This document shows positions 19,552 to 39,104 of a DNA stretch of 64,000 nt, piece after piece (the first letter of the stretch is position 1; the number at the start of each line of letters is the position of its first letter). The position numbers and the translations under genes were made by a program. The DNA lies in the NCBI RefSeq assembly GCF_004745955.1, contig NZ_SRLD01000031.1, forward strand, positions 1-64,000, written 5' to 3'. Under the pieces are notes generated by a model. It searched no databases. It was not told the origin of the DNA and saw nothing but the letters and a program-made list of their open reading frames with translations. Origin of the DNA: Hymenobacter elongatus (GTDB lineage: Bacteria > Bacteroidota > Bacteroidia > Cytophagales > Hymenobacteraceae).

Positions 19552-19786
19552 AATGGTAAGGAAGAGAGTGAGAAATAGGTGAGCCTGTATTCGTTGACGA
19601 AGCAAATATAGGATTATTGGAAGTACTTTACTGGATGTAACAATTTTATTTGCAGTTCAATAATCGGAAAAATGCACAAACTATAATAGAATAAAATTAT
19701 AGTCAGATACTTACCTGTTTACTGCTCGTGTGAAATCGTTCTGTGCCGTGCATCATACCTTGCGCAACCTTATCGTTTCTGCCAGC

Positions 19787-22700
19787 ATGCGTACATTCCT
19801 CCTGCTTCTTTTGCTCAGTCTACTCATGTTGGTTGGTTCTTCCGCGCCGTTATTGCCCTCCGCTCCCGATCCGCCGCAATGGAAACGGATTGACGCCTTG
19901 CTGGCCAAGAATCAGACGGCCTCGGCTGACAAACTCGTGGAAGAACTCTACCAGGCCGCCCGTCAGCGTCAGGACACGCCCGACTATCTGCGGGCGCTCT
20001 TGTACAAGTTGCGCTTGCTGGAGAACAGAGAAGAAGAGGCCGATGAAAAAGCCATTGCGCTGGTCGAAGCCGACTTGGCAGCGGCCCGGTTTCCGGCCCG
20101 GCCCATTCTGCATAGTCTGCTGGCTCAGCTGTATGCCAGCTATTACGACGAGCACCGCTACCAGCTGTATGACCGCACCGGCGGCGCGGCCACCGGGGCT
20201 GCTGCTACCGATACGACTGCTCTGGATATCCGGACCTGGGATGCCGCCCGGCTTGGCAGTGCGGTGGTGCGACATTATCGGGCGTCGCTGACAGACGAGC
20301 CCCAGCGCCAGCAGCAGCTTCTGCTGGCTCGCTTGGGCTACGCCGTGCGGGGTGGTACTGCCGAAGGTCGGAGCCTGCGCCCCACACTCTACGACCTGCT
20401 GGCTCATCGCGCAGTGGATGGCCTGCGGAATGATGAATACTACATAACGCGCCCCGCGGCCCAGTTTGCTCTGAAAACGGGCGCTTTGTTCGGCCCCGCC
20501 GCCGAGTTTGCCGGCCTCCAGCTCGTCGCCCCGCCCGCTGATTCGCTCAATGGGCAGTTTCACGCCTTGCAGGTGCTACAACAGCTCACGGCGTTTCGGC
20601 TGCGGGACGCCCGCAATCAGACCGCCCTGGCTGATGTGGACCTGAAGCGGCTGGAGTTTGTGCACGAGCACGCCACGCTGGTCAGCAAAGACTCGCTGTA
20701 TCAGACGGCGCTGGCCCGGGCCGCCGACACCTACCAGCACCTACCCGGTAGCACCCTGTTTTTGGCCGCTCAGGCCGAGCTGCTGGTCGAAAGTCAACCC
20801 GCCAAAGCCCGGGAGCTGGCTCTGCGGGCCGAAGCCCGCTTCCCAACATCGCGCGGCGGCCGTTGGGCCCGCGCCCTGCGGCAGCGCATTGAGGCCGTAG
20901 AAGTAGCATTCACGACCGAAGCGGCGGTGCTGCCCAACCAAGCGTGGCTGCTGAAGCTGAACGTGCGCAACGTGCCGAAGCTCTATGCTACGGCTTACCG
21001 CATCAGCACGGCTCAGGCCGTGCGCGAGCTGGAGCGCGACGACCAACGGCCCCGCAGCTGGCAGCAGCAGCATGCCCGTGTGTTGGCTGGCAAGCCCGCC
21101 GCCACCTGGCCCCTGACCGTACCTGGCCCGGCCGACTTCAAGCCGCATACCGTGCAGCAGGCGGGGCCGGCTTTGCCGCTGGGCCGCTACCTGCTGGTGC
21201 TAAGCACCGCTGCCGAAAACCCGACAAAGTCGCAGCCGGCCGTAGTAACCGCTTATGCCGAGCTGAACGTGAGCCAGTTGAGTCAGGTGCGCCGCACTGC
21301 CACCTCAGAAGGCGTGGAGCTGCTGGTGCTGCACCGGCAAAGCGGCGCGGCTGAGGTCGGCGCTACCGTTCTACCCTTCTTTCAATATTATGACCAACCC
21401 GCCCGAACCTACAAGCAACGGCGCGGCGCGGAGCTCCTGACCAGTGCCGAGGGCCAGGCCAGCATCGGGCGCGACCCGGCCATGGGTGCCGATGCCAACC
21501 TGCGGGCCGTGCTCCTGACGAAAGGACCTGATTCGCTGCTGGTGCGTGAGGGCGGCTACTATATGCCCCGCCGCGCTACCACTGCTGAAGCTGAGCAGCC
21601 CCAGCGCCGTGCGTTTCTGTACACTGACCGGGCTATCTACCGCCCCGGCCAGACACTCTATTTCAAAGGCATTCTGACGGAAAGTCTCGCTGGCAAATCA
21701 CGGCTGCTCACCAAGCAGCCACTTACGGTGCGGCTACAGGACGTGAATGGCCAAACGGTACAGACCCTGCCTTTCACCAGCTCCGACTTCGGTTCCTTTC
21801 ACGGCTCCGTGGTGTTGCCGACAGGCTTGCTAAACGGCGAAATGAGCCTGCAAGCCGATTATGGCAGCGCAAGCTTCGCGGTGGAAGACTACAAGCGGCC
21901 CACGTTTCAGGTGACGCTGGAGCCGGTGCAGGGTACGCCGGTATTGGGCCAGCGTGTTTCGGTAAGCGGGAAGGCCGTGGCCTATGCCGGGCAGCCCGTC
22001 GATGGCGGCACGGTGCAATACCGCGTGGTGCGGCGCACGTTCTGGCCGTTTTATCGGCCGTATGGCGGCGGCCGAAGCAGCTTTCCCAACTATGGGGGCG
22101 AGCCGGAGGTTGAAATAGACAACGGCACTACCCAAACCGATTCGGCGGGTGGCTTCACGGTAACTTTTGTGGCCCAGGCCGACGCGCAAACTGCTAAGCA
22201 GCGCGGCGGCGGGCCGGGCTACGTGTTCGAAGTGACGGCCGACGTGACCGATGCCGCCGGCGAAACCCGCACGGGTCAGCAGAGCGTCAGCCTGGGTACT
22301 ACGGCCCTCACGCTGCGGCTGGAAATGCCCGAGCTGCTCAATCAGGACGCTATTCCAGTCCTCCGGCTGCTCAGCACCAATGCCGCCGGCGAAGCCCGGG
22401 CCGCGCGCGGGCAATTGCGGCTGTTTCGGCTCGTGCCACCCGCCCGGGCATTGCGGCCCCGCCCGTGGGAGCGGCCCGAGCGCGAGGCGCTGAGCCCGGC
22501 GGAGTTTCGGCGCCAATTTCCGTTGGACGCCTACGGCTCGGAAGACAATGACAGCGCTTGGGCGCGCACCGAAGTATTGACCCAGGAATTCGATACCGAC
22601 AAAACCCCGCTGCTTGCGGCTCTGGCCACGCAGCTGGCCCGGCAAGCGCCGGGGCGCTACCTGCTACAAGCTTCCACCGCAGGCCCCGTGGCGGCGGGCC

Positions 22701-25700
22701 CGCCCGCGGAGCACCGATTCACGCTGTACGCTCCTGCCGCCAGGCAGCTTCCCGTGCCCGCTCCCGATTGGTTTGTTCCGCTCCAGGACAGCGTGCCGCC
22801 CGGCCAGGCCGTGCAATTTTTGGTAGGCAGCAGCGAAGCCAACGCCCGGATTCTGGTGGAGGTGGAGGCGAAGGGCGCAACGCTGTATCGTGAATGGCTG
22901 ACGCTGGCGGCCAATGAGCAGCGCCTGGTGGCGGTGCCGGTGCCCCTAGCTCTTGGCGAGACGCAATTGTATGTGCACACCACGCAAGTGCGCGACAACC
23001 GTCTGTATCTGCATTCGGCCACCGTGCAGGTTGCCGTGCCGCCCGCGCCACTGCGTCTGGGCATCGCCACGTTTCGCGACAAGCTTCAGCCCGGCCAGAA
23101 GGAAACGTGGCGCGTCACGATTCAGCAGGCCGATGGCAAGCCCGCCGCCGCCGAGCTGCTGGCCACGCTCTATGACCAGTCGCTGGACACGTTCCGGCCA
23201 CATTCGTTCGAGGCATTGGTATTTCCGACGCCATATTATCCGGCCGTGCTGGGCTGGAAGGGCCGGTTTGGCGTGGAGGAGTCGCAGGAACTGTTTGGCG
23301 ATGCGCTGGTAGACATTGATTTAGAAATGCTTTATCCACATCTGAATTGGTGGGGCTATTCTTTGGGTGAAGAAGAAAGCAGCAATGACTATAAGCTATT
23401 GCCTAAAAACTCCCAGATGAAGTTTACGCCCCCTGTAATAAAGCGGGATGAGGAAGTTATGGTAGCTAGTGGTGCTGCCGCGCCACAAGCTGCTATGCGG
23501 ATGGAAATGGCCGCCGACGCCAAGCAGCTCAACGAAGTTGTAGTAACTGGCGGACCCAAGCAGCAACCCGCTGCCCAAGCCGACCTCTCCGCCATTCCGG
23601 CCCGCGCTGATTTTCGCGAAACGGCCTTCTGGCTGCCCGCGCTCCGCACCAACGCCGCCGGCGAAACCGTGCTCGAATTCCAGATGCCCGAGGCCGTGAC
23701 GCGCTGGCAGCTGCTGGCATTGGCCCATGATGAGCAGCTGCACACCGGTGTGCTCCGCCGCGACCTAGTGACCCAAAAGCAGCTGCAGGTGACGCCCAAC
23801 GCGCCACGCTTTTTCCGGGAAGGCGACCAGCTGCGTTTCTCTGCCAAACTCAGCAACCTCACTGGCCAGCCCATGCGCGGCACCGCCCAGCTGTTTCTGT
23901 TCGATGCCCGCACCCAGCAGCCAATCGAGAGCCGCGTGCTCCGGGGTACGGCACAGCTAGACTTTGACCTGCCAGCCAACCAAAGCAGCGCCTTGAGCTG
24001 GGAGCTACATATTCCGGAGACTGCCGAGGGGCAAGTGCCGCTGGCAGCCATCACCTACCGCGTGGTGGCACAAACGGGCCCGGCGAAAACCAAAAAGCGC
24101 AAAACGCAGGACGAGCAGCCGGTTTTCAGCGACGGGGAGGAAAACACGCTGCCTGTGCTGCCCAACCGCCTGCTCGTCACCGAGAGTCTGCCGCTGCCCA
24201 TCGTGGGGCCGGCCACGCGGGAGTTCGAGCTGAAAAAGCTGACGACCAGTATTTCGGCCACGCGGCGCAACTACTCCCTGACGCTGGAAATGACGCCCAA
24301 CCCTGCCTGGTATGCCGTGCAGTCGTTGCCTTACCTCATGGAGTACCCCTACGAGTGCTCCGAGCAGATATTCAGCCGCTTGTATGCCAACTTGCTGGCG
24401 GCCCGAATTCTGCAGCAAAACCCGAAGCTGCAACCCGTGCTGGCCGAATGGCGCCGCGCGGCCCAGGCAGGCGACAAAACGGCCCTGACCAGCAGGCTGG
24501 AGCAAAATGAAGAGGTAAAAGCGCTGCTGCTGCAGGAAACTCCCTGGGTGCGCGATGCCCACAACGAAACCGAGCGGATGCGCCGCCTGGCGGAGCTGCT
24601 GGACGAACCCCGCCTGAAGGCCGAAACTGCCCGCGCCTTGGCCAAACTAGCTAAAATGCAGCAGCCTAATGGAGCTTTTCCGTGGTTTGAGAAAATGCCC
24701 GATGACCGCTACATCACCCAGCTGATTGTGGCCGGATTTGGCAAGCTGCGCAAGCTGGGAGCCTTCGATGCCGCCCAGCACGAGCAGGGCCGGCCGCTGC
24801 TGGAAAACGCCCTGCGCTACCTCGACGAACAGCTCCAAAACGATTACATCCGTCTGCGGCAGCAAAAGGGAGTAGACCTGAAAAAAGCGCACCTAACCGA
24901 TATACAGGTGCATGCCTTATACGCTCGCAGCTTCTGGCTGACTCCGGTGGTAGCAAAGCAGGCCCAGCCGGCACAGGCGTACTACCAGCAGCAGGCCGCT
25001 ACATTTTGGCCCGCGCAAACGCGCTACTTGCAGGCTCAGATTGCCTTGACGCTGCAGCGGCGGCAAGTGCAGCCCGCAGCCGTGAAGGATATTATGACGG
25101 CTCTCACCGAAAATGCCCTGCACTCGCCCGAGCTGGGAATGTACTGGAAGGAGGTGCGTGGCGGCTACTATTGGCGCGAAGCACCCACCGAAACCCAGGC
25201 CACGCTCATCGAAGCCTACGACGAGGTGCTCAGCGACCAGAAGGCTGTGGATGAAATGAAGCTCTGGCTGCTCAAGCAAAAGCAAACTCAGCACTGGGAA
25301 AGTACCCGGGCCACCGCCGATGCCTGCTACGCCCTGCTGCTGCGCGGCTCCGACTGGCTCCAGCCCACCCAGCCGCTCCAGATCAACGTAGGCGGCGTGG
25401 CAGTTGCGCCAAGCCGTCAGCAAGCGGGCACGGGCTATTTCAAAACCACGTGGTCGGCGGCCGATATCAAGCCCGCGCAAGGCAAAGTGACAGTGCAAAA
25501 AACCGATGCCGGAGTAGCCTGGGGAGCGTTGTATTGGCAGTATTTCGAGCAGCTCGACCACATCACGCCCGCTGCCACGCCTTTGAGCCTGGAGCGGCAG
25601 CTATTTCGGGAGCAGCGCACGGCCAGTGGCCCGGTGCTGGAGCGCCTCACCGCCGCCACACCCCTGCGCGTGGGCGACGTGCTGGTGGTACGCCTCGTGC

Positions 25701-26014
25701 TGCGCTCCGACCGCGACCTGGAATACGTGCATCTTAAAGACCAGCGCGCCGCTGGCTTGGAGCTTATCAGCCAGACTTCGGGCTACCGCTACCAAGGCGG
25801 CCTGGGCTACTATGAAAGCCCCCGCGACGCGGCTACCAATTTCTTTCTGAGCTATTTCCCGAAGGGCACCCACACGTTCGAATACCGGCTGCGGGCGGCC
25901 CAAAGCGGGGACTTCTCCGGCGGCCTCAGCCAAGTGCAGTGCCTGTACGCGCCGGAGTTTACGAGCCATTCGGCCGGAGTTCGGGTACCGATTGAGCCGC
26001 TTGTAAGTAGGTAG
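19787..26014 (+). CDS. giant alpha-2-macroglobulin family protein with thioester motif
   Basis: 2075 residues from the ATG at 19787, starting MRTFLLLLLLSLLMLVGSSA (signal peptide). An N-terminal helical-repeat region (about 30-430) precedes the MG domains; R-A-F-L-Y-T-D-R-A-I-Y-R-P-G-Q-T-L-Y-F-K-G at about 630 is the MG2 signature. The bait-like region is followed by the alpha-2-macroglobulin signature F-R-E-T-A-F-W-L-P (about 1280). The thioester motif C-S-E-Q begins at about 1524, so the protease-trapping chemistry appears intact. A complement-type toroid and a receptor-binding-like C-terminus follow. An odd insert with L-N-E-V-V-V-T-G, like a TonB plug box, begins at about 1248. Likely a periplasmic protease trap. 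Confidence 0.92.
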   Translation: MRTFLLLLLLSLLMLVGSSAPLLPSAPDPPQWKRIDALLAKNQTASADKLVEELYQAARQRQDTPDYLRALLYKLRLLENREEEADEKAIALVEADLAAARFPARPILHSLLAQLYASYYDEHRYQLYDRTGGAATGAAATDTTALDIRTWDAARLGSAVVRHYRASLTDEPQRQQQLLLARLGYAVRGGTAEGRSLRPTLYDLLAHRAVDGLRNDEYYITRPAAQFALKTGALFGPAAEFAGLQLVAPPADSLNGQFHALQVLQQLTAFRLRDARNQTALADVDLKRLEFVHEHATLVSKDSLYQTALARAADTYQHLPGSTLFLAAQAELLVESQPAKARELALRAEARFPTSRGGRWARALRQRIEAVEVAFTTEAAVLPNQAWLLKLNVRNVPKLYATAYRISTAQAVRELERDDQRPRSWQQQHARVLAGKPAATWPLTVPGPADFKPHTVQQAGPALPLGRYLLVLSTAAENPTKSQPAVVTAYAELNVSQLSQVRRTATSEGVELLVLHRQSGAAEVGATVLPFFQYYDQPARTYKQRRGAELLTSAEGQASIGRDPAMGADANLRAVLLTKGPDSLLVREGGYYMPRRATTAEAEQPQRRAFLYTDRAIYRPGQTLYFKGILTESLAGKSRLLTKQPLTVRLQDVNGQTVQTLPFTSSDFGSFHGSVVLPTGLLNGEMSLQADYGSASFAVEDYKRPTFQVTLEPVQGTPVLGQRVSVSGKAVAYAGQPVDGGTVQYRVVRRTFWPFYRPYGGGRSSFPNYGGEPEVEIDNGTTQTDSAGGFTVTFVAQADAQTAKQRGGGPGYVFEVTADVTDAAGETRTGQQSVSLGTTALTLRLEMPELLNQDAIPVLRLLSTNAAGEARAARGQLRLFRLVPPARALRPRPWERPEREALSPAEFRRQFPLDAYGSEDNDSAWARTEVLTQEFDTDKTPLLAALATQLARQAPGRYLLQASTAGPVAAGPPAEHRFTLYAPAARQLPVPAPDWFVPLQDSVPPGQAVQFLVGSSEANARILVEVEAKGATLYREWLTLAANEQRLVAVPVPLALGETQLYVHTTQVRDNRLYLHSATVQVAVPPAPLRLGIATFRDKLQPGQKETWRVTIQQADGKPAAAELLATLYDQSLDTFRPHSFEALVFPTPYYPAVLGWKGRFGVEESQELFGDALVDIDLEMLYPHLNWWGYSLGEEESSNDYKLLPKNSQMKFTPPVIKRDEEVMVASGAAAPQAAMRMEMAADAKQLNEVVVTGGPKQQPAAQADLSAIPARADFRETAFWLPALRTNAAGETVLEFQMPEAVTRWQLLALAHDEQLHTGVLRRDLVTQKQLQVTPNAPRFFREGDQLRFSAKLSNLTGQPMRGTAQLFLFDARTQQPIESRVLRGTAQLDFDLPANQSSALSWELHIPETAEGQVPLAAITYRVVAQTGPAKTKKRKTQDEQPVFSDGEENTLPVLPNRLLVTESLPLPIVGPATREFELKKLTTSISATRRNYSLTLEMTPNPAWYAVQSLPYLMEYPYECSEQIFSRLYANLLAARILQQNPKLQPVLAEWRRAAQAGDKTALTSRLEQNEEVKALLLQETPWVRDAHNETERMRRLAELLDEPRLKAETARALAKLAKMQQPNGAFPWFEKMPDDRYITQLIVAGFGKLRKLGAFDAAQHEQGRPLLENALRYLDEQLQNDYIRLRQQKGVDLKKAHLTDIQVHALYARSFWLTPVVAKQAQPAQAYYQQQAATFWPAQTRYLQAQIALTLQRRQVQPAAVKDIMTALTENALHSPELGMYWKEVRGGYYWREAPTETQATLIEAYDEVLSDQKAVDEMKLWLLKQKQTQHWESTRATADACYALLLRGSDWLQPTQPLQINVGGVAVAPSRQQAGTGYFKTTWSAADIKPAQGKVTVQKTDAGVAWGALYWQYFEQLDHITPAATPLSLERQLFREQRTASGPVLERLTAATPLRVGDVLVVRLVLRSDRDLEYVHLKDQRAAGLELISQTSGYRYQGGLGYYESPRDAATNFFLSYFPKGTHTFEYRLRAAQSGDFSGGLSQVQCLYAPEFTSHSAGVRVPIEPLVSR

Positions 26015-31185: not shown

Positions 31186-33555
31186 CTACGGCACGCCCAG
31201 CGCCGCGTCGCCGTCGAAGGGCGGAATGGCGATGATGGGGCTGCGGCCAGTGCTTACCGAATAGATGGAGGGAGCCTGATGCAGTTGGCCAGACAGGCGG
31301 CGCAGGCCTTCGGGTGCCACTTGGTAGCGGAAAATGGTGTCGTATTCGGCAAAATCCCGGCGGACATCTACCTCCAGATCCTGGATTACGCCGCCGTGGA
31401 TGTCATATACCCAGCCGTGCAGGTGCAGCGGCGTTTCGCGCGCGTAGGCCTGCTGCACGGTGGGCGACTGGTGCAGGTTATACACTTGCTCGATGACGTT
31501 CAGCTCGACCAGGCGGCGGTACCGCTCGTCCTCGGTTTCCAGCGCGCCCAGCTCGTGCGCGTGGCGGCGCATCACGTCGCGCACATTGCTGAGCCAGCTG
31601 CTGACCACGCCGGGTTCCGTGTTTTGCATCGCCGTTTTCACGCCCCGGCAGCCGTAGTGGCCACACACGATAATGTGCTGGATATGCAGCGTCTCGACAG
31701 CGTAGTGCAGCACCGAAGCCAGGTTCAGGTCGGTACTCACGACCAGGTTGGCCACGTTGCGGTGCACGAAAACTTCGCCGGGCGCCGTGCCGGTCATTTC
31801 GCTCACCGCAATATGATTGTCGGAGCAGCCGACGAACAGGAATTTGGGACTCTGCTGCGCCGTGGCCTCGAAGAAGCGCGGGTTGCGCCGTAGCTTTTCC
31901 GCTACCCAGTCGCGGTTATTCTGAAACAGCTTGTAGTAGGCTTCAAAATCGGCCTCCTTGGTGCTCACGTGGGGCTGGGCGGCAATGCTGTGGGCGTAGT
32001 CGTCGCCTTTGCGCAGAAAAATCAGCTGGATGTTGCGCTGGCGGGCCGTTTCGCGAAAGTTCTCAATGGCGCTCAGCACGTCCCGGTCGATGTAGATAGA
32101 GTTGGTGCCGTCAATTTCGACGGTCGTATCCATCGGGATGTCCTTGAGCACGGTCATGATGCTGGCCTTGTTCAGAAACGACACATGCTCGCCCAGATTG
32201 ATGCGCAGGTGCTCCTGGCCGGCCACGGAATAGTGCTGAAAAAGGTGCGCGTTCTTGTAGGTTTCGCGCAGAATGAAGAACAGGCCCACGGCCGCGCCGA
32301 CACCAATGCCGATCAGCAAATCGGTGAGCAGAATGGCAGCAATAGTCACGATGAAGGGCAAAAACTCGGTCAGGCCTGCCTGGAAGTGCTGGCGGAAAAT
32401 GCTGACCCGCGCCAGCTTGTAGCCCGTCACGAGCAGAATAGCCGCCAACGCCGCCCACGGCACCAGGTTGAGCAGGCGAGGAAATACCAGCACGCTCAGC
32501 AGCAAAAACGACCCGTGTACCAGCGCGGCCACCTTCGTGCGGCCACCGGCGTTGATGCTCACCGAGCTACGCACAATCACAGACGTGAGCGGCAGGCCAC
32601 CCAGCAGGCCACTGACGATATTGCCCGCTCCCTGCGCCTTCAGCTCGTGGTTGGTAGGCGTTTTGCGCTTTAGTGGGTCCAGCTCGTCGGTGGCCTCCAC
32701 AGCCAGCAGTGCCTCCAGGCTGGCTACCAGCGCAATGGCAAAAGCCGCGGAATATATCTTCGGATTGGTGATTTGGGAGAAGTCAGGCAGCGTGAAGAGC
32801 TGCATGAACTCGGCGGCACTTTGTGGCACGGGCAGCTGCACCAAGTGGGTGCCTGCCAGCGCAAAAGCAGGGTTGAGCAGGGCGGCGGCGGCGTTCAGCG
32901 CCACGCCCAGCACGATAACTACCAGGGCCGCCGGAATGGCCGCCAGCACCGCATTGCGCCGACACATTGGCCGCTCCCAGAAAAGTAGCACCGCCAGGCT
33001 CGCCAGCGCAATGACCAAGGCCGTCGGGTTGAACTCCTGCACGGCGTGCGCAAGCAGGGACTCAAGCTCGCCGCCGTTCCACGAAAACAGCGCCAGCGAC
33101 TCTACCGCGTCGGCGTCGTAGCCCAGCACGTGGGGCAGCTGCTTCAAAATCAGGATGATGCCGATGGCGGCCAGCATGCCCTTGATAACCGACGAGGGGA
33201 AAAAGTTGCTGATAATGCCGGCTTTGGCGATGCCTAATCCTATTTGCATCACTCCCGCTATGCACAAGGCCAGCTGCAACGCCCCAAACGAGCCCAGCGC
33301 CTCCAGACTGCTGACCACGACCAGAATCAGACCCGCTTCCGGCCCCGAAATGCTGACCGCCGACCGGCTCAGCGCCCCCACTACCACCCCCCCCACGATG
33401 CCGGCAATAATGCCGGCAAACAGCGGGGCCCCCGAGGCCAGCGCAATGCCCAGGCACAGCGGCACGGCCACCAAAAACGACACCAGGCCGCCTTGCAGGT
33501 CACTTTTGAAGTAAGAAAAATCCCAGGTTTTAGTTCTGGCAGCTGCGGTAGACAT
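31186..33555 (-). CDS. SulP anion transporter fused to a beta-carbonic anhydrase domain
   Basis: 789 residues from ATG 33555; a further ATG lies at 33573. The first about 430 residues are a SulP transporter (signature G-L-V-S-F-L-V-A-V-P-L-C-L-G-I-A-L-A-S-G, multiple membrane helices). A short STAS-like region (about 450-530) is followed by a beta-carbonic anhydrase domain (about 560-760). Zinc ligands are Cys 577 in G-C-S-D-N-H and the H/C pair in C-G-H-Y-G-C. The expected Arg of the C-x-D-x-R motif is His at 581. The fusion suggests bicarbonate uptake linked to CO2 hydration, but the dyad change could weaken or abolish the activity. Confidence 0.9.
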   Translation of the reverse strand: MSTAAARTKTWDFSYFKSDLQGGLVSFLVAVPLCLGIALASGAPLFAGIIAGIVGGVVVGALSRSAVSISGPEAGLILVVVSSLEALGSFGALQLALCIAGVMQIGLGIAKAGIISNFFPSSVIKGMLAAIGIILILKQLPHVLGYDADAVESLALFSWNGGELESLLAHAVQEFNPTALVIALASLAVLLFWERPMCRRNAVLAAIPAALVVIVLGVALNAAAALLNPAFALAGTHLVQLPVPQSAAEFMQLFTLPDFSQITNPKIYSAAFAIALVASLEALLAVEATDELDPLKRKTPTNHELKAQGAGNIVSGLLGGLPLTSVIVRSSVSINAGGRTKVAALVHGSFLLLSVLVFPRLLNLVPWAALAAILLVTGYKLARVSIFRQHFQAGLTEFLPFIVTIAAILLTDLLIGIGVGAAVGLFFILRETYKNAHLFQHYSVAGQEHLRINLGEHVSFLNKASIMTVLKDIPMDTTVEIDGTNSIYIDRDVLSAIENFRETARQRNIQLIFLRKGDDYAHSIAAQPHVSTKEADFEAYYKLFQNNRDWVAEKLRRNPRFFEATAQQSPKFLFVGCSDNHIAVSEMTGTAPGEVFVHRNVANLVVSTDLNLASVLHYAVETLHIQHIIVCGHYGCRGVKTAMQNTEPGVVSSWLSNVRDVMRRHAHELGALETEDERYRRLVELNVIEQVYNLHQSPTVQQAYARETPLHLHGWVYDIHGGVIQDLEVDVRRDFAEYDTIFRYQVAPEGLRRLSGQLHQAPSIYSVSTGRSPIIAIPPFDGDAALGVP

Positions 33556-33779
33556 ACGCGTAGGTAAAGGCATGAGAAGTCCGGCGCGGCCCAACAGGCA
33601 GCGAAGAGAAAAATGTTGGAAGCAAACAGGGAGCAAAACCGGCCACTTGGGGTCAGTTGCGGACGGCACAGAGTTAAAGCAGGTATCTGCTTCGTTGTGC
33701 TGGCGAAATGCTTTTGAGTCAGATGATTAATTCTACTAACACAAAGGTATAGACCCAAAGCAGGCTAGGAATTAAAGGA

Positions 33780-34420: not shown

Positions 34421-35857
34421 CTACGCTTGCTGCCGACGGCGACCTTCCAGAATGCGGAAGAAGGAGCGGGTCTGGATTTCCTCCAGCGTGAGGCCGGTGG
34501 CCAGCACTTCCTGCTCCGTGATGGCACCGCAGTTCATGGCCCTCAGGAAAAAGTTGAGCAGGCCCTGACCCGTGGCGGCGTCGTCGAAAATGTCGCCGGT
34601 GAGCGTGGAAATAGCGGCGCGCTCCACGAAGGTTTTCAGGCGGTTCAGAGCCTCATCGTAGCTGCTCAAAAAGAAGTTGTAGGTGGCCGCGTAGCGCATC
34701 GGCAGCTGAGCCGGGTTCAGGTCCCAGCCTTGGTAGAGGCCGTTGATGAGCGAGTGGGTGGTGTGCTGAAAACCCTGCCGCCAGGCGTTGTGCACCGAGT
34801 CGCGGTTCTCCTTGAGTTGCTCGAAGCTCAGATTGTCGCCCCGGTGCGGACCAATGGGCATAACGTTGGTCGCGCCATCGGAGAGGAAGATGCCCGTGCC
34901 GCCCAGCGCTACCTTGGTCATGTGGTGGGCAAAGTCGCAGACGGGGTGGGCCATGGTTTGGTAGCGGGCCGTGATGCCGGCTGAAGCCGTGTAGTCGTAC
35001 GTGCCGAAATGAGCGGCCACACACCGGCCCTCACTGGCCCGGATGATGCGCAGGAGCGGATTGCGGCCTTCCTCGTCCATGATGATCTGGGTGGCTTCGA
35101 CCATCGTCTCCATTTTCAGAGCGCCGGCGGGCAGGTTGTTGGCCTTTTCGATCAGCTCAAACAAGCGCACCATCGTGGTCATCTGCTCCGGAATGGTCAC
35201 TTTGGGCAGCATCACCACGAAGTTTTCGGGTAGCCGGCCGCCGGTCTGCTCCAGCAGCGTGGTCAGAAAAATATCGAGCGTGCGCACGCCCCGGGCCTTC
35301 ATGTCCTCGGTAAACGGCTTGATGCGGATACCGATGAAGGGCGACAACGTGCCGTTTTGCATGCCTGTGGCTACTTCGCCGGCCGCGCGCACGGCGGTTT
35401 CGTCTTCCTCCGCGTCGGGGCGGTTGCCGAAGCCATCCTCAAAGTCAATCCGGAAATCCTCCACCGCTTCGCGCCGCAGCTTCTGGACGATCTTGTTGTA
35501 GACCGAATACGCCAGCCAGGCAGGCTCGTGCTTGCGGGCCTCGGGGCTCATGGCGTCGAGGCGCTCGGTGAGGGCCGCAACGTCGGTGGAAAGCGTGGGC
35601 AGGTGCTCGTAGCCGTTGAGCCGGAGCACGCGGGCCAGCTCGGCGAAGTTGGGCGCGTAGCTTTTCAGGTTGTTGAGGGCAATGTCGCCCATCCGCACGC
35701 ACGTATCTGCCTTAAACAGGTTGGCCCCGCCGTACACGGTGTGCACGGGCTGGCGGTCGGGCTTGTCGCCGGGGTAGGTGTGCTGAAAGTGACGGTTGGC
35801 CACGCCCAGCTGTTCGAGCAGCTGGTCTTTGGCGGTGTCCGGGAGGCTTAGTTTCAT
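34421..35857 (-). CDS. HpcH/CitE-like lyase or synthase family protein (DUF6986-like)
   Basis: 478 residues. Features of the HpcH/HpaI-CitE TIM-barrel superfamily are visible: I-D-F-E-D-G-F-G-N-R (about 140), V-V-M-L-P-K-V-T, M-E-T-M-V-E-A-T with the metal-binding Glu, and H-F-G-T-Y-D-Y-T-A-S-A-G-I. Homologues are sometimes annotated as phosphoenolpyruvate kinase or DUF6986 proteins and lack a proven role as far as I know. It is the last gene of the urate-degradation run, 216 bp after uraH with a repeat in between. Since the pathway ends in glyoxylate, a C-C bond reaction on glyoxylate (malate-synthase-like) is a reasonable inference. Confidence 0.75.
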   Translation of the reverse strand: MKLSLPDTAKDQLLEQLGVANRHFQHTYPGDKPDRQPVHTVYGGANLFKADTCVRMGDIALNNLKSYAPNFAELARVLRLNGYEHLPTLSTDVAALTERLDAMSPEARKHEPAWLAYSVYNKIVQKLRREAVEDFRIDFEDGFGNRPDAEEDETAVRAAGEVATGMQNGTLSPFIGIRIKPFTEDMKARGVRTLDIFLTTLLEQTGGRLPENFVVMLPKVTIPEQMTTMVRLFELIEKANNLPAGALKMETMVEATQIIMDEEGRNPLLRIIRASEGRCVAAHFGTYDYTASAGITARYQTMAHPVCDFAHHMTKVALGGTGIFLSDGATNVMPIGPHRGDNLSFEQLKENRDSVHNAWRQGFQHTTHSLINGLYQGWDLNPAQLPMRYAATYNFFLSSYDEALNRLKTFVERAAISTLTGDIFDDAATGQGLLNFFLRAMNCGAITEQEVLATGLTLEEIQTRSFFRILEGRRRQQA

Positions 35858-35908
35858 AGGGAAAAAGAAGGCGGGAATTTAAAAATGGGAGGGTACTAGA
35901 GCTAAAAA

Positions 35909-36053
35909 GCTAGTTGCCCTCCTCAGATGAGGAGGGGTTAGGAGTGGTTGAAACGGTAGAACGATGGTCAGAATTAGCTCTAAGCTTCGTTCTACCGTGG
36001 TCAACCACCCCGCCCTTCGGGCACCCCTCCTCATCTGAGGAGGGAAACTAGCT
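35909..36053. repeat. MITE-like hairpin with CTCCTCAGATGAGGAG ends
   Basis: Outer arms 35909-35939 and 36023-36053 pair over 31 bp with one mismatch; each contains the palindrome CTCCTCAGATGAGGAG. Inner sequences ACGGTAGAACGA (from 35953) and TCGTTCTACCGT (to 35998) also pair, so the whole 145 bp can fold into one long hairpin. It lies between uraH and the HpcH-like gene. Confidence 0.82.
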
Positions 36054-36073
36054 GTCTAATTCATAACTTTAGC

Positions 36074-36415
36074 TCAGCTGCCGCGGTACGTTGAATACCC
36101 GAAGGGGTTCAGCAACAGGGGAATGTGGTAATGCTCGGCGGCCAGCACATGGAACACGATTTCCACGAACGGGTAGAAGTTGGCCGTGCTCTGCCGCTCG
36201 AAGTATTCCTGGGTGAAAAACTTCATTTTGTAGGTGCCCAACGGTACGTGCTGCTCCTTGGGCAGCAGGTCCGGAATGCGGCCGTCGGCGTTAGTGCGGC
36301 CGCGGGCCAGCTCCTGCCAGACGTCGCCGGGCTGCTGGGCGAAAAGGGCAATGGTGACGCCCTGGGCCGGCCGGCCGGCCGTGGTATCCAGAATGTGGGT
36401 TGTAATCTGACTCAT
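36074..36415 (-). CDS. uraH: 5-hydroxyisourate hydrolase
   Basis: 113 residues starting MSQITTHILDTTAGRPAQG. This is the transthyretin-like enzyme that opens 5-hydroxyisourate to OHCU. Family marks are present: H-I-L-D-T-T-A-G-R-P at the N-terminus, the central F-Y-P-F-V-E-I-V-F and the diagnostic C-terminus Y-R-G-S. The catalytic His, Arg and His (H7, R15 region and H near H-V-L-A-A-E-H-Y-H-I-P) can be seen. The ATG overlaps the uraD stop by 4 bases (ATGA), so the two are translationally coupled. Confidence 0.95.
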   Translation of the reverse strand: MSQITTHILDTTAGRPAQGVTIALFAQQPGDVWQELARGRTNADGRIPDLLPKEQHVPLGTYKMKFFTQEYFERQSTANFYPFVEIVFHVLAAEHYHIPLLLNPFGYSTYRGS

Positions 36416-37844: not shown

Positions 37845-39104
37845 CTAGTGGGAAGAGGATGAATAGTGAGAGAAAAGTAGCTGCAAAAACCGCTCGGCAA
37901 CCTGCACGGCGGCGGCCACGTCGGCCAGCTCCACGTTTTCGAGCGGGTTGTGGCTAATGCCCTTAAAGCAGCGGATAAACAGCATCGTAGCCGGCGACAC
38001 GGCCGAAATCGGTACCGCATCGTGGCCCGCGCCACTCACCAGCGGCACCACCGCGTAGCCCGATTCGGTGATGGCCTGGGCCAGCAAGGTATTCATTTCG
38101 GGCGCGCAGCTCACGGGCGCGGTGTACTGAATCAAGTTCCAGTGCAGCTTCAGGTTGCGCCGGTCGGCAATGCCCTGGGCGTGGTGGTGGAGCTCGTCGT
38201 AGGCCGTGGCCAGGCGGGCCGCGTCGGCACTGCGCAGGTCGAGGCTGCACACCACTTCGCCGGGAATAACGTTGCTGGCCGCGTGGCGCACGTCGAGCTT
38301 GCCCACGGTGGCCACCAGTTCCTGCGTATTAGCCACGCCAAACTGCTCGGCCGCCAGCACAAATTCGGCCGCGCCGGCCAGGGCATCCTGGCGCATGTGC
38401 ATCGGTACGGTGCCGGCGTGGCCGGCCATGCCCTGCCAGGTAAGCTCCACGCGCTGCTGCCCGGCAATGGCCGTTACCAGCGCCACCGGAATGTTGCGCT
38501 CCCACAGCACTGGGCCTTGCTCAATGTGGGTTTCAAAGTAGCCCAGCCATTGGTCGGCGGCAAGGGCGTCGGCGGGCAGCAGCTGCGCGTTGCCCCCCAT
38601 GGTGTCGATGGCCTGGGTGAGGGAAATACCCTGGGCATCGGGCTTGGTGAGCAGGTTGAAATCGAAAGAGCCGGCCACGACTTTACTGCCCAGATAGGTG
38701 GTGTGGTAGCGCACGCCCTCCTCGTCGCTGAAGGCAATCAGCTCGACGTGGAACGGCAGCTCCACCGGGCTTTGCACCAGCTGCTCCAGCAAATCGAGGC
38801 CCATGAGCACCCCCAGTGGCCCGTCGTATTTGCCCGCATTCACCACCGTATCGATGTGGGAGGCTATAACGAAGGTTTTGGCTCCGGCCGCGCGGCTCAC
38901 CAGCCGCCCGCGCACGTTGCCGATGCTGTCGAGGCGGGTGCTGAGGCCGGCCGCGTCCATCCAGGATTTAACCAAGGCGCTGCCCTGCAAAAAAGCCGGG
39001 GTGCCGAAGGTGCGCGTTACGCCCTGCGCATCCTCACTGATGGCGGCCAAGGCCTCAATGCGGCGCATGATTTTATCGGCGCGGGAAGTGTAGTTGTCGT
39101 TCAC
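37845..39104 (-). CDS. allC: allantoate amidohydrolase (M20 family)
   Basis: 419 residues from a GTG start at 39104; an in-frame stop lies just upstream and no ATG is available. The M20 metallopeptidase fold has metal-site motifs S-H-I-D-T-V-V-N-A-G-K-Y-D-G, D-E-E-G-V-R-Y and T-H-I-E-Q-G-P, plus the dimerisation-domain G-M-A-G-H-A-G. It should hydrolyse allantoate to ureidoglycine, CO2 and ammonia. The M20 family also includes N-carbamoyl amino acid hydrolases, but position between allB and ureidoglycine aminohydrolase decides for allantoate. Confidence 0.9.
   Translation of the reverse strand: MNDNYTSRADKIMRRIEALAAISEDAQGVTRTFGTPAFLQGSALVKSWMDAAGLSTRLDSIGNVRGRLVSRAAGAKTFVIASHIDTVVNAGKYDGPLGVLMGLDLLEQLVQSPVELPFHVELIAFSDEEGVRYHTTYLGSKVVAGSFDFNLLTKPDAQGISLTQAIDTMGGNAQLLPADALAADQWLGYFETHIEQGPVLWERNIPVALVTAIAGQQRVELTWQGMAGHAGTVPMHMRQDALAGAAEFVLAAEQFGVANTQELVATVGKLDVRHAASNVIPGEVVCSLDLRSADAARLATAYDELHHHAQGIADRRNLKLHWNLIQYTAPVSCAPEMNTLLAQAITESGYAVVPLVSGAGHDAVPISAVSPATMLFIRCFKGISHNPLENVELADVAAAVQVAERFLQLLFSHYSSSSH

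What the first reader, a model, noticed from the sequence alone, without database searches (positions are those of the whole stretch)
34421..35857. HpcH/CitE-like protein of unknown reaction ending the urate operon
The protein is in a family with names such as PEP kinase that are not convincingly supported. Its fixed place behind enzymes that release glyoxylate suggests a carbon-carbon bond reaction with glyoxylate, for example a malate-synthase-like or ureidoglycolate-cleaving role. This would be a new enzyme function.
Basis: inference. Interest (0 to 1): 0.65.

Follow-up and report, generated by a model that had tools for sequence, protein, structure and literature searches.

The report
Likely new ureidoglycolate-splitting enzyme family
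The last gene of this bacterium's uric-acid breakdown operon probably makes the enzyme, so far unidentified there, that splits ureidoglycolate into glyoxylate and urea, using a fold known for carbon-carbon chemistry.

Summary
The gene is real: 478 aa, minus strand, last in a Hymenobacter urate operon, Pfam DUF6986 (PF22484). Its predicted fold is that of malyl-CoA lyase/CitE/malate synthase (Z 24); the superfamily's metal and arginine residues are invariant in 26 of 26 aligned relatives. AllA, the known ureidoglycolate lyase, was found in 0 of 59 relatives and 0 of 50 further DUF6986 genomes; the own genome has one AAH/UAH-type amidohydrolase over cut-off, the operon's AAH. In 7 of 80 related loci allantoicase replaces the pair that makes ureidoglycolate here, while DUF6986 stays. 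In a sample of 375 Bacteroidota genomes, all 12 with either route carry DUF6986. Urease genes lie nearby in 7 of 80 loci, five of them of the route with no other urea-making step, and directly downstream on a Gordonia plasmid. Best reading: a second, non-homologous ureidoglycolate lyase (glyoxylate + urea), a C-N version of malyl-CoA cleavage (confidence 0.7). Main rival: a glyoxylate-condensing, malate-synthase-like enzyme. No activity has been measured; the own genome lacks urease, as do about half of the other DUF6986 genomes tested outside the genus; three divergent members sit outside purine genes; the oxalurate route was not searched.

The parts
34421..35857 (-). DUF6986 (PF22484) protein, proposed (S)-ureidoglycolate lyase, CitE/malyl-CoA-lyase-like fold
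35880..36080 (-). strongly self-complementary stretch, mostly the gap between the HIU hydrolase and DUF6986 genes (folded as DNA -67.5 kcal/mol, z -13.35); a 19-base near-palindrome at 35917 and again at 36025
36074..36415 (-). 5-hydroxyisourate hydrolase UraH (start taken at the ATG at 36415)
   Evidence: TIGR02962 from residue 48 of the longer ORF; start codons
36412..36954 (-). OHCU decarboxylase UraD
   Evidence: PF09349; TIGR03180
37098..37844 (-). (S)-ureidoglycine aminohydrolase; its product is (S)-ureidoglycolate (established pathway knowledge)
   Evidence: TIGR03214 288.8 bits, cut-off 200
37845..39104 (-). allantoate amidohydrolase (M20); the only TIGR01879 match over cut-off in the genome
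   Evidence: NF006775
39225..40559 (-). allantoinase AllB
   Evidence: TIGR03178 551.6 bits
40650..42191 (+). urate oxidase with PF06181 (Urate_ox_N), divergent from the operon

Best explanation
The gene encodes a metal-dependent (S)-ureidoglycolate lyase (the reaction of EC 4.3.2.3) that is not homologous to AllA. Inferred mechanism: E254 and D288 hold Mg2+ (E140/D141 through waters), which binds the carboxylate and hydroxyl of ureidoglycolate; R178, positioned by D138, helps take the hydroxyl proton; the C-N bond breaks, leaving Mg-bound glyoxylate; an acid of the C-terminal lid (D425 or D426) protonates the leaving urea. This is malyl-CoA lyase cleavage with urea in place of the acetyl-CoA enolate. 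Shown: gene, operon, predicted fold, residue conservation, co-occurrence, absence of AllA in the genomes searched. Inferred: substrate, products, metal and each catalytic step.
For: (1) Gap: AllA (PF04115) in 0 of 59 relatives, 20 of which have DUF6986 (the control E. coli rings), in 0 of 50 DUF6986 genomes (50 of the 80 loci) and in none of the 15 strong DUF6986 genomes of a 375-genome sample. The own genome has one TIGR01879 amidohydrolase over cut-off, the operon's; 10 of 16 allantoicase-type DUF6986 genomes have none over cut-off. (2) Swap: 69 of 80 loci have the ureidoglycine aminohydrolase, 7 allantoicase, none both, 4 neither (allantoicase confirmed for L068 and L115). DUF6986 also abuts an annotated bifunctional allantoicase/aminohydrolase gene in Tsukamurella and an allantoicase in Nocardia. 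Both routes end at ureidoglycolate. (3) Co-occurrence: 8 of 8 allantoicase and 4 of 4 aminohydrolase genomes of 375 carry DUF6986 (7 genera). In Hymenobacter all 19 DUF6986 genomes have the aminohydrolase, against 1 intact copy in the 18 others (p 1e-9 without regard to kinship). (4) Urea: urease genes in 7 of 80 loci, five of them Mucilaginibacter/Niastella clusters of the AAH + aminohydrolase route, in which no other step makes urea; Gordonia DUF6986 lies directly upstream of a urease operon; intact urease in 15 of 19 DUF6986 Hymenobacter against 6 of 18 (p 0.008). (5) Fold and residues: malyl-CoA lyase 4l9y Z 24.1, rmsd 2.4 over 279 residues; six of the seven catalytic positions invariant in 26 of 26, the lid acid D425 invariant too but its assignment open.
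Against: No activity measured. The own genome has no urease, nor do G009 and G016; G030 has only an interrupted piece; of 42 DUF6986 genomes outside Hymenobacter tested, 22 have a strong urease match, 2 a weak one, 18 none (G077 and G198 may be one genome). Six of 16 allantoicase-type genomes have an amidohydrolase over the TIGR01879 cut-off that could be a UAH, and 2 of 19 Hymenobacter a second one. Ureidoglycolate is only moderately stable and decays by itself to glyoxylate and urea (PMC3793230, passages), so an enzyme is not strictly required. Three divergent members (36-45% identity) have no purine gene of my reference set nearby, in genomes without allantoicase or an aminohydrolase over cut-off; near the Nonomuraea copy none of the reference genes was found either. 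G025 has a lone aminohydrolase gene and no DUF6986. The lid motif DDAAT resembles EDAAT of malate synthase, and a malate synthase G gene lies about 9 kb from the Gordonia copy. In the 375-genome sample AllA is so rare (6) that its non-overlap with DUF6986 is not significant (p 1). Oxidation of ureidoglycolate to oxalurate was not searched for.
Confidence: 0.7

Rival explanations
1. A glyoxylate-consuming enzyme: it condenses glyoxylate with acetyl-CoA (malate-synthase-like) or another acyl-CoA or 2-oxo acid, and ureidoglycolate is split by spontaneous decay or an unknown enzyme.
For: Fold shared with malyl-CoA lyase and malate synthase; profile similarity to malate synthases (E 2e-6, probability 89) and CitE-like proteins (E 9e-10, probability 96); lid motif DDAAT beside EDAAT of malate synthase; 7 of 19 DUF6986 Hymenobacter have no canonical malate synthase match; malate synthase G gene in the Gordonia region.
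Against: Canonical malate synthase in the own genome and in 12 of 19, independent of DUF6986 (p 0.5). DUF6986 follows the making of ureidoglycolate (12 of 12), whereas glyoxylate has many sources and sinks. It leaves the ureidoglycolate step empty and the urease neighbours unexplained. PMC12694930 (passages) notes that allantoin breakdown does not co-produce acetyl-CoA.
Confidence: 0.15
2. It acts on another glyoxylate adduct or ureide (for example the other isomer of ureidoglycolate, or a different 2-hydroxy acid), as a side-product or repair enzyme of the pathway.
For: Strict coupling to the pathway and an intact catalytic set do not fix the substrate; divergent members outside purine genes suggest that the family can change role.
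Against: Does not explain how ureidoglycolate itself is cleaved where AllA is missing and no UAH candidate is seen; an optional repair enzyme should be absent sometimes, yet 12 of 12 have it.
Confidence: 0.1
3. It is a phosphoenolpyruvate kinase or other phosphotransferase, as the label mentioned by the first reader says.
For: Only the label, which no call of mine returned; plasmid records call relatives 'aldolase/citrate lyase family protein'.
Against: Fold and residues of the CitE/malate synthase type; 'phosphoenolpyruvate kinase' with 'allantoin' found two papers that look unrelated by title and start of abstract.
Confidence: 0.01

Closest known systems
Malyl-CoA lyase (Rhodobacter sphaeroides, PDB 4l9y/4l9z) and the CitE-like superfamily, including human CLYBL
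   Same: TIM barrel plus C-terminal lid; Z 24.1, rmsd 2.4 over 279 residues; D-x-E-D, Arg, and the Glu and Asp metal ligands in the same order; chemistry on a Mg-bound glyoxylate adduct.
   Different: 17% identity over the aligned part; longer (478 aa) with an N-terminal helical extension; its own Pfam family; Tyr (Y287) before the metal Asp where 4l9y and 5ugr have Ala; proposed leaving group urea, not an acyl-CoA enolate.
Malate synthase A/G (PF01274)
   Same: Fold (3cv2 Z 23.4); LPK, xDY and DAAT-type motifs.
   Different: Scores 15.8 bits, under the PF01274 cut-off of 26.4; a true malate synthase is elsewhere in the genome (G000:C46).
AllA / Dal3 ureidoglycolate lyase (PF04115, EC 4.3.2.3)
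   Same: The proposed reaction, ureidoglycolate to glyoxylate + urea.
   Different: No sequence match to PF04115. AllA is Ni-dependent (PMC3793230, passages), of cupin-like fold (recalled). The two did not occur together in the genomes searched.
Ureidoglycolate amidohydrolase UAH (M20 family; EC 3.5.1.116, number recalled)
   Same: Acts on the same proposed substrate.
   Different: Releases ammonia; unrelated M20 family; no second TIGR01879 protein over cut-off in the own genome.

Membership tests
PF22484 DUF6986 | HMM score over the gathering cut-off across the domain | tested here: met
   644 bits, cut-off 27, profile 4-408 of 408
CitE-like / malyl-CoA lyase superfamily | TIM barrel with C-terminal lid | tested here: met
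   model pLDDT 88.8, pTM 0.88; 4l9y Z 24.1 over 279 residues
CitE-like / malyl-CoA lyase superfamily | Metal ligands Glu and Asp (E141, D168 in R. sphaeroides MCL) | tested here: met
   E254 and D288, 26 of 26
CitE-like / malyl-CoA lyase superfamily | Catalytic Arg and the D-x-E-D motif (R76, D42, E44, D45) | tested here: met
   R178, D138, E140, D141, 26 of 26
CitE-like / malyl-CoA lyase superfamily | Catalytic Asp in the lid hairpin (D299) | tested here: inconclusive
   D425 invariant; 426 is Asp in 22 and Glu in 4 of 26; strands 418-420 and 423-425 in the model; no residue-level superposition available
CitE-like / malyl-CoA lyase superfamily | Acyl-CoA substrate and CoA pocket | not testable with these tools
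   model coordinates not readable here; needs docking or assay
HpcH_HpaI PF03328 | HMM score over cut-off | tested here: not met
   21.1 bits, cut-off 25; fold-level kinship is another question
Malate synthase PF01274 | HMM score over cut-off | tested here: not met
   15.8 bits, cut-off 26.4
AllA ureidoglycolate lyase PF04115 | HMM match | tested here: not met
   no PF04115 match at E 0.01
Ureidoglycolate amidohydrolase (M20) | M20 peptidase family match | tested here: not met
   no M20 match at E 0.01
EC 4.3.2.3 ureidoglycolate lyase (function) | Release of urea and glyoxylate from (S)-ureidoglycolate | not testable with these tools
   enzyme assay needed

The most novel reading that the evidence does not exclude
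DUF6986 is a second, independently evolved ureidoglycolate lyase and a carbon-nitrogen lyase within the CitE/malate synthase superfamily, derived from a malyl-CoA-lyase-type ancestor by exchanging the acetyl-CoA enolate for its nitrogen analogue, urea; it closes the purine pathway in many Bacteroidota and in some Actinomycetota.
Probability: 0.62. Interest if true: 0.72.

Novelty: new variant of a known kind. Interest (0 to 1): 0.62.

Why it matters
It would give a function to a Pfam family that has none, fill a missing step of urate breakdown in many bacteria, replace kinase and generic aldolase labels, and show an aldol-type active site turned to C-N cleavage. Whether this step frees urea or ammonia decides how purine nitrogen is recovered and whether urease is needed. 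The claim can be tested directly with a published coupled assay (PMC3793230, passages).

Tried and rejected
Malate synthase as the primary reading: considered because of fold and the DAAT motif, lowered. Action on ureidoglycine or allantoate: rejected because allantoicase can replace both upstream enzymes while DUF6986 stays. Anticorrelation of AllA and DUF6986 in the phylum sample as proof: rejected, not significant (p 1). Urease in the own genome as support: not found. A relative with a solved structure by sequence: the single sequence gave two matches at E 0.6-0.7 to an unrelated enzyme; the profile gave malyl-CoA lyases at E 3e-4 and 1e-3. Dropped rows: of 16 genomes over the PF22484 cut-off, G393 (29.3 bits) was left out because its protein reads like PTS enzyme I (own recognition, sequence), leaving 15; G216, G278 and G451 (and a second match in G142) were under the cut-off. 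Weak aminohydrolase matches under the TIGR03214 cut-off (73 of the 77 matching genomes, 10 of 31) were not counted. Urease matches of 23-24 bits (G085, G101) were counted as weak, and the Hymenobacter G030 piece with stops as absent. Literature: ten searches; DUF6986 is named in 0 papers of the held library. Among the titles and abstract beginnings listed (20 of 392, 20 of 24, 40 of 113, 20 of 255, all hits in the others) none describes a CitE-like ureidoglycolate lyase; subscription papers and preprints are not held, so this is no proof of absence. PMC5041015 and PMC12506659 (passages) only cite PMC3793230.

Full report
What is there. The ORF at 34421-35857 is on the minus strand, begins with ATG and encodes 478 aa. 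It is a full-length DUF6986 protein (PF22484, 644 bits), with matches under the cut-offs to HpcH_HpaI and malate synthase and no NCBIfam match at E 0.01. Order on the minus strand: allantoinase, allantoate amidohydrolase, (S)-ureidoglycine aminohydrolase, OHCU decarboxylase, HIU hydrolase, DUF6986; urate oxidase (PF06181) is divergent. The genus is Hymenobacter, judged by the closest matches, up to 91% identity.

Conservation of the place. The genome scan found 327 relatives and kept the best 80, all Bacteroidota, 44 of them Hymenobacter, so these loci are not independent. Of the 80, 77 have UraD and UraH in the fetched DNA, 69 the ureidoglycine aminohydrolase, 7 allantoicase, none both, and 4 neither (L048, L050, L052, L059; L048 and L059 are short contigs). 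In L050 DUF6986 is followed by xanthine dehydrogenase and urease genes. Where the allantoate amidohydrolase/aminohydrolase pair is missing in the seven, an allantoicase stands between allantoinase and UraD (L068 tested and confirmed). Eight further regions from unnamed Bacteroidota genomes (L147-L151, L161-L163) also have allantoicase with DUF6986, with some change of order; in L147 and L148 UraH comes after DUF6986. Both routes give (S)-ureidoglycolate (established pathway knowledge), so the substrate of DUF6986 lies at or after that compound.

The gap. Two enzymes are known to take ureidoglycolate to glyoxylate: AllA (releases urea) and UAH (releases ammonia); another fate is oxidation to oxalurate (starts of abstracts in the listing). 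AllA was found in 0 of 59 relatives, 20 of which have DUF6986, in 0 of 50 DUF6986 genomes, 50 of the 80 loci, and in none of the DUF6986 genomes of the phylum sample, where 6 of 375 have it. For UAH I used the M20 subfamily model TIGR01879. The own genome has one match over cut-off, the operon's own. Among the 19 DUF6986-bearing Hymenobacter, G019 and G028 have a second one over cut-off, G004 and G016 carry split or partial extra matches under it, and G027 has only a fragment. Among 16 allantoicase-type DUF6986 genomes, 10 have none over cut-off and 6 have at least one (G087, G089, G090, G092, G099, G290). The oxidation route was not searched.

Co-occurrence. In a sample of 375 Bacteroidota genomes, 8 have allantoicase and 4 have the aminohydrolase over cut-off; all 12 have DUF6986. 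Fifteen genomes of the sample have a strong DUF6986: these 12 and three divergent ones. Drawn at random the chance of 12 of 12 is 3e-20, but the genomes are related (7 genera, 3 of the 12 in Hymenobacter), so the number is only a guide. Among 37 Hymenobacter genomes, the own one counted, 19 have DUF6986 and all 19 have the aminohydrolase; of the 18 others, G025 has an intact lone aminohydrolase and G011 an interrupted one in a decayed cluster where DUF6986 is gone.

Urea. Urease genes lie near DUF6986 in 7 of 80 loci. Five of these (L044, L045, L054, L055, L056: Mucilaginibacter and Niastella) have the allantoate amidohydrolase and aminohydrolase route, which makes ammonia; the only urea source left within that route is a lyase acting on ureidoglycolate. 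In Gordonia DUF6986 lies directly upstream of a urease operon (143 bases apart); a malate synthase G gene lies about 9 kb on the other side. Over Hymenobacter, an intact urease alpha gene is in 15 of 19 genomes with DUF6986 and 6 of 18 without (p 0.008, not corrected for kinship). Against this, the own genome has none, and of 42 DUF6986 genomes tested outside Hymenobacter 22 have a strong match, 2 a weak one and 18 none (G077 and G198 show identical places and may be one genome).

Other bacteria. tblastn against plasmid records found five DUF6986 genes, all in Actinomycetota. In Tsukamurella the gene abuts a gene annotated as bifunctional allantoicase/ureidoglycine aminohydrolase; in Nocardia it is followed by allantoicase and allantoinase PuuE, with UraD, UraH and a xanthine-dehydrogenase-like match upstream; in Paenarthrobacter it lies between a PuuE-like gene (under that model's cut-off) and an NCS1 transporter; in Gordonia before urease. 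Near the Nonomuraea copy the record shows no annotation and none of my reference genes was found. So four of five are in purine or urea context.

Structure and residues. AlphaFold2 on 35 aligned sequences gave pLDDT 88.8, pTM 0.88. The best structural matches are malyl-CoA lyase 4l9y (Z 24.1, rmsd 2.4, 279 residues), CLYBL (23.4) and malate synthase A (23.4); rows within 1 of each other are tied (Foldseek). Profile comparison: E 9e-10, probability 96, to three CitE-like proteins; E 2e-5 and 2e-6, probability 78 and 89, to malate synthases. The study of malyl-CoA lyases PMC3832036 (passages, and sections 9 and 13 in full) names E141/D168 (metal), E44/D45 (second shell), D42 and R76, and D299 of the lid. 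By alignment the first six are E254/D288, E140/D141, D138 and R178 here, each the same in 26 of 26 sequences chosen for the alignment. D299 should be D425 (26 of 26) or D426 (22 Asp, 4 Glu); register with the DxAT motif favours 426, invariance favours 425. Y287 stands where 4l9y and 5ugr have Ala, which would fit a small leaving group; that is inference.

Reading. Ureidoglycolate and malyl-CoA are the same kind of molecule, a 2-hydroxy acid made by adding a nucleophile to glyoxylate; the nucleophile is urea in one, the acetyl-CoA enolate in the other. An enzyme that holds glyoxylate on Mg2+ and protonates a leaving group could serve either. Gene context places this one at ureidoglycolate. I therefore take it as a ureidoglycolate lyase, confidence 0.7. 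The main rival is consumption of glyoxylate.

Limits. A tree of 26 sequences, rooted at its midpoint, places the three divergent, non-purine members (L144-L146) on very long branches inside the Bacteroidota part, which suggests that they left the purine role, but long branches make this unsure. Their neighbours (a deaminase with weak TadA similarity, YbdK- and RimK-like ligases, an LD-carboxypeptidase) gave no clue. Actinomycetota genomes could not be surveyed. Nothing biochemical was shown.

Noticed in passing
window 35880-36080 (-), also L084 in the same gap, and L105: A strongly self-complementary element (19-base near-palindrome twice, folding z -13.35) sits between the HIU hydrolase and DUF6986 genes; of 164 loci searched for the exact pattern, only the own locus, L084 (same gap) and L105 (beside a malate synthase gene of another Hymenobacter) have it. 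It looks like a REP/MITE-like repeat (inference) and may affect transcription of DUF6986.
   Followed up: partly
window 31186-33669 (-): SulP transporter fused to a carbonic anhydrase domain (827 aa), downstream of DUF6986 here and in 3 of 80 related loci; may deal with bicarbonate from ureide breakdown, or be unrelated.
   Followed up: no
window 19730-26014 (+): Large bacterial alpha-2-macroglobulin-like protein (MG2, A2M, bMG10 domains; 2094 aa).
   Followed up: no
L160 (unnamed Hymenobacter G011): Decayed urate cluster: fragments of allantoinase and UraD and an interrupted aminohydrolase, with DUF6986 gone.
   Followed up: partly
L144, L145, L146: Divergent DUF6986 proteins (36-45% identity) with the catalytic residues kept, but beside unrelated genes (LD-carboxypeptidase; YbdK-type ligase and RimK-like protein; deaminase): a possible second function of the family.
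   Followed up: partly
L119-L124 and L153-L158 (six Bacteroidota genomes): Weak AllA-family (PF04115) proteins, 46-51 bits, with none of my purine reference genes within about 10 kb; probably not the lyase of a urate operon.
   Followed up: partly
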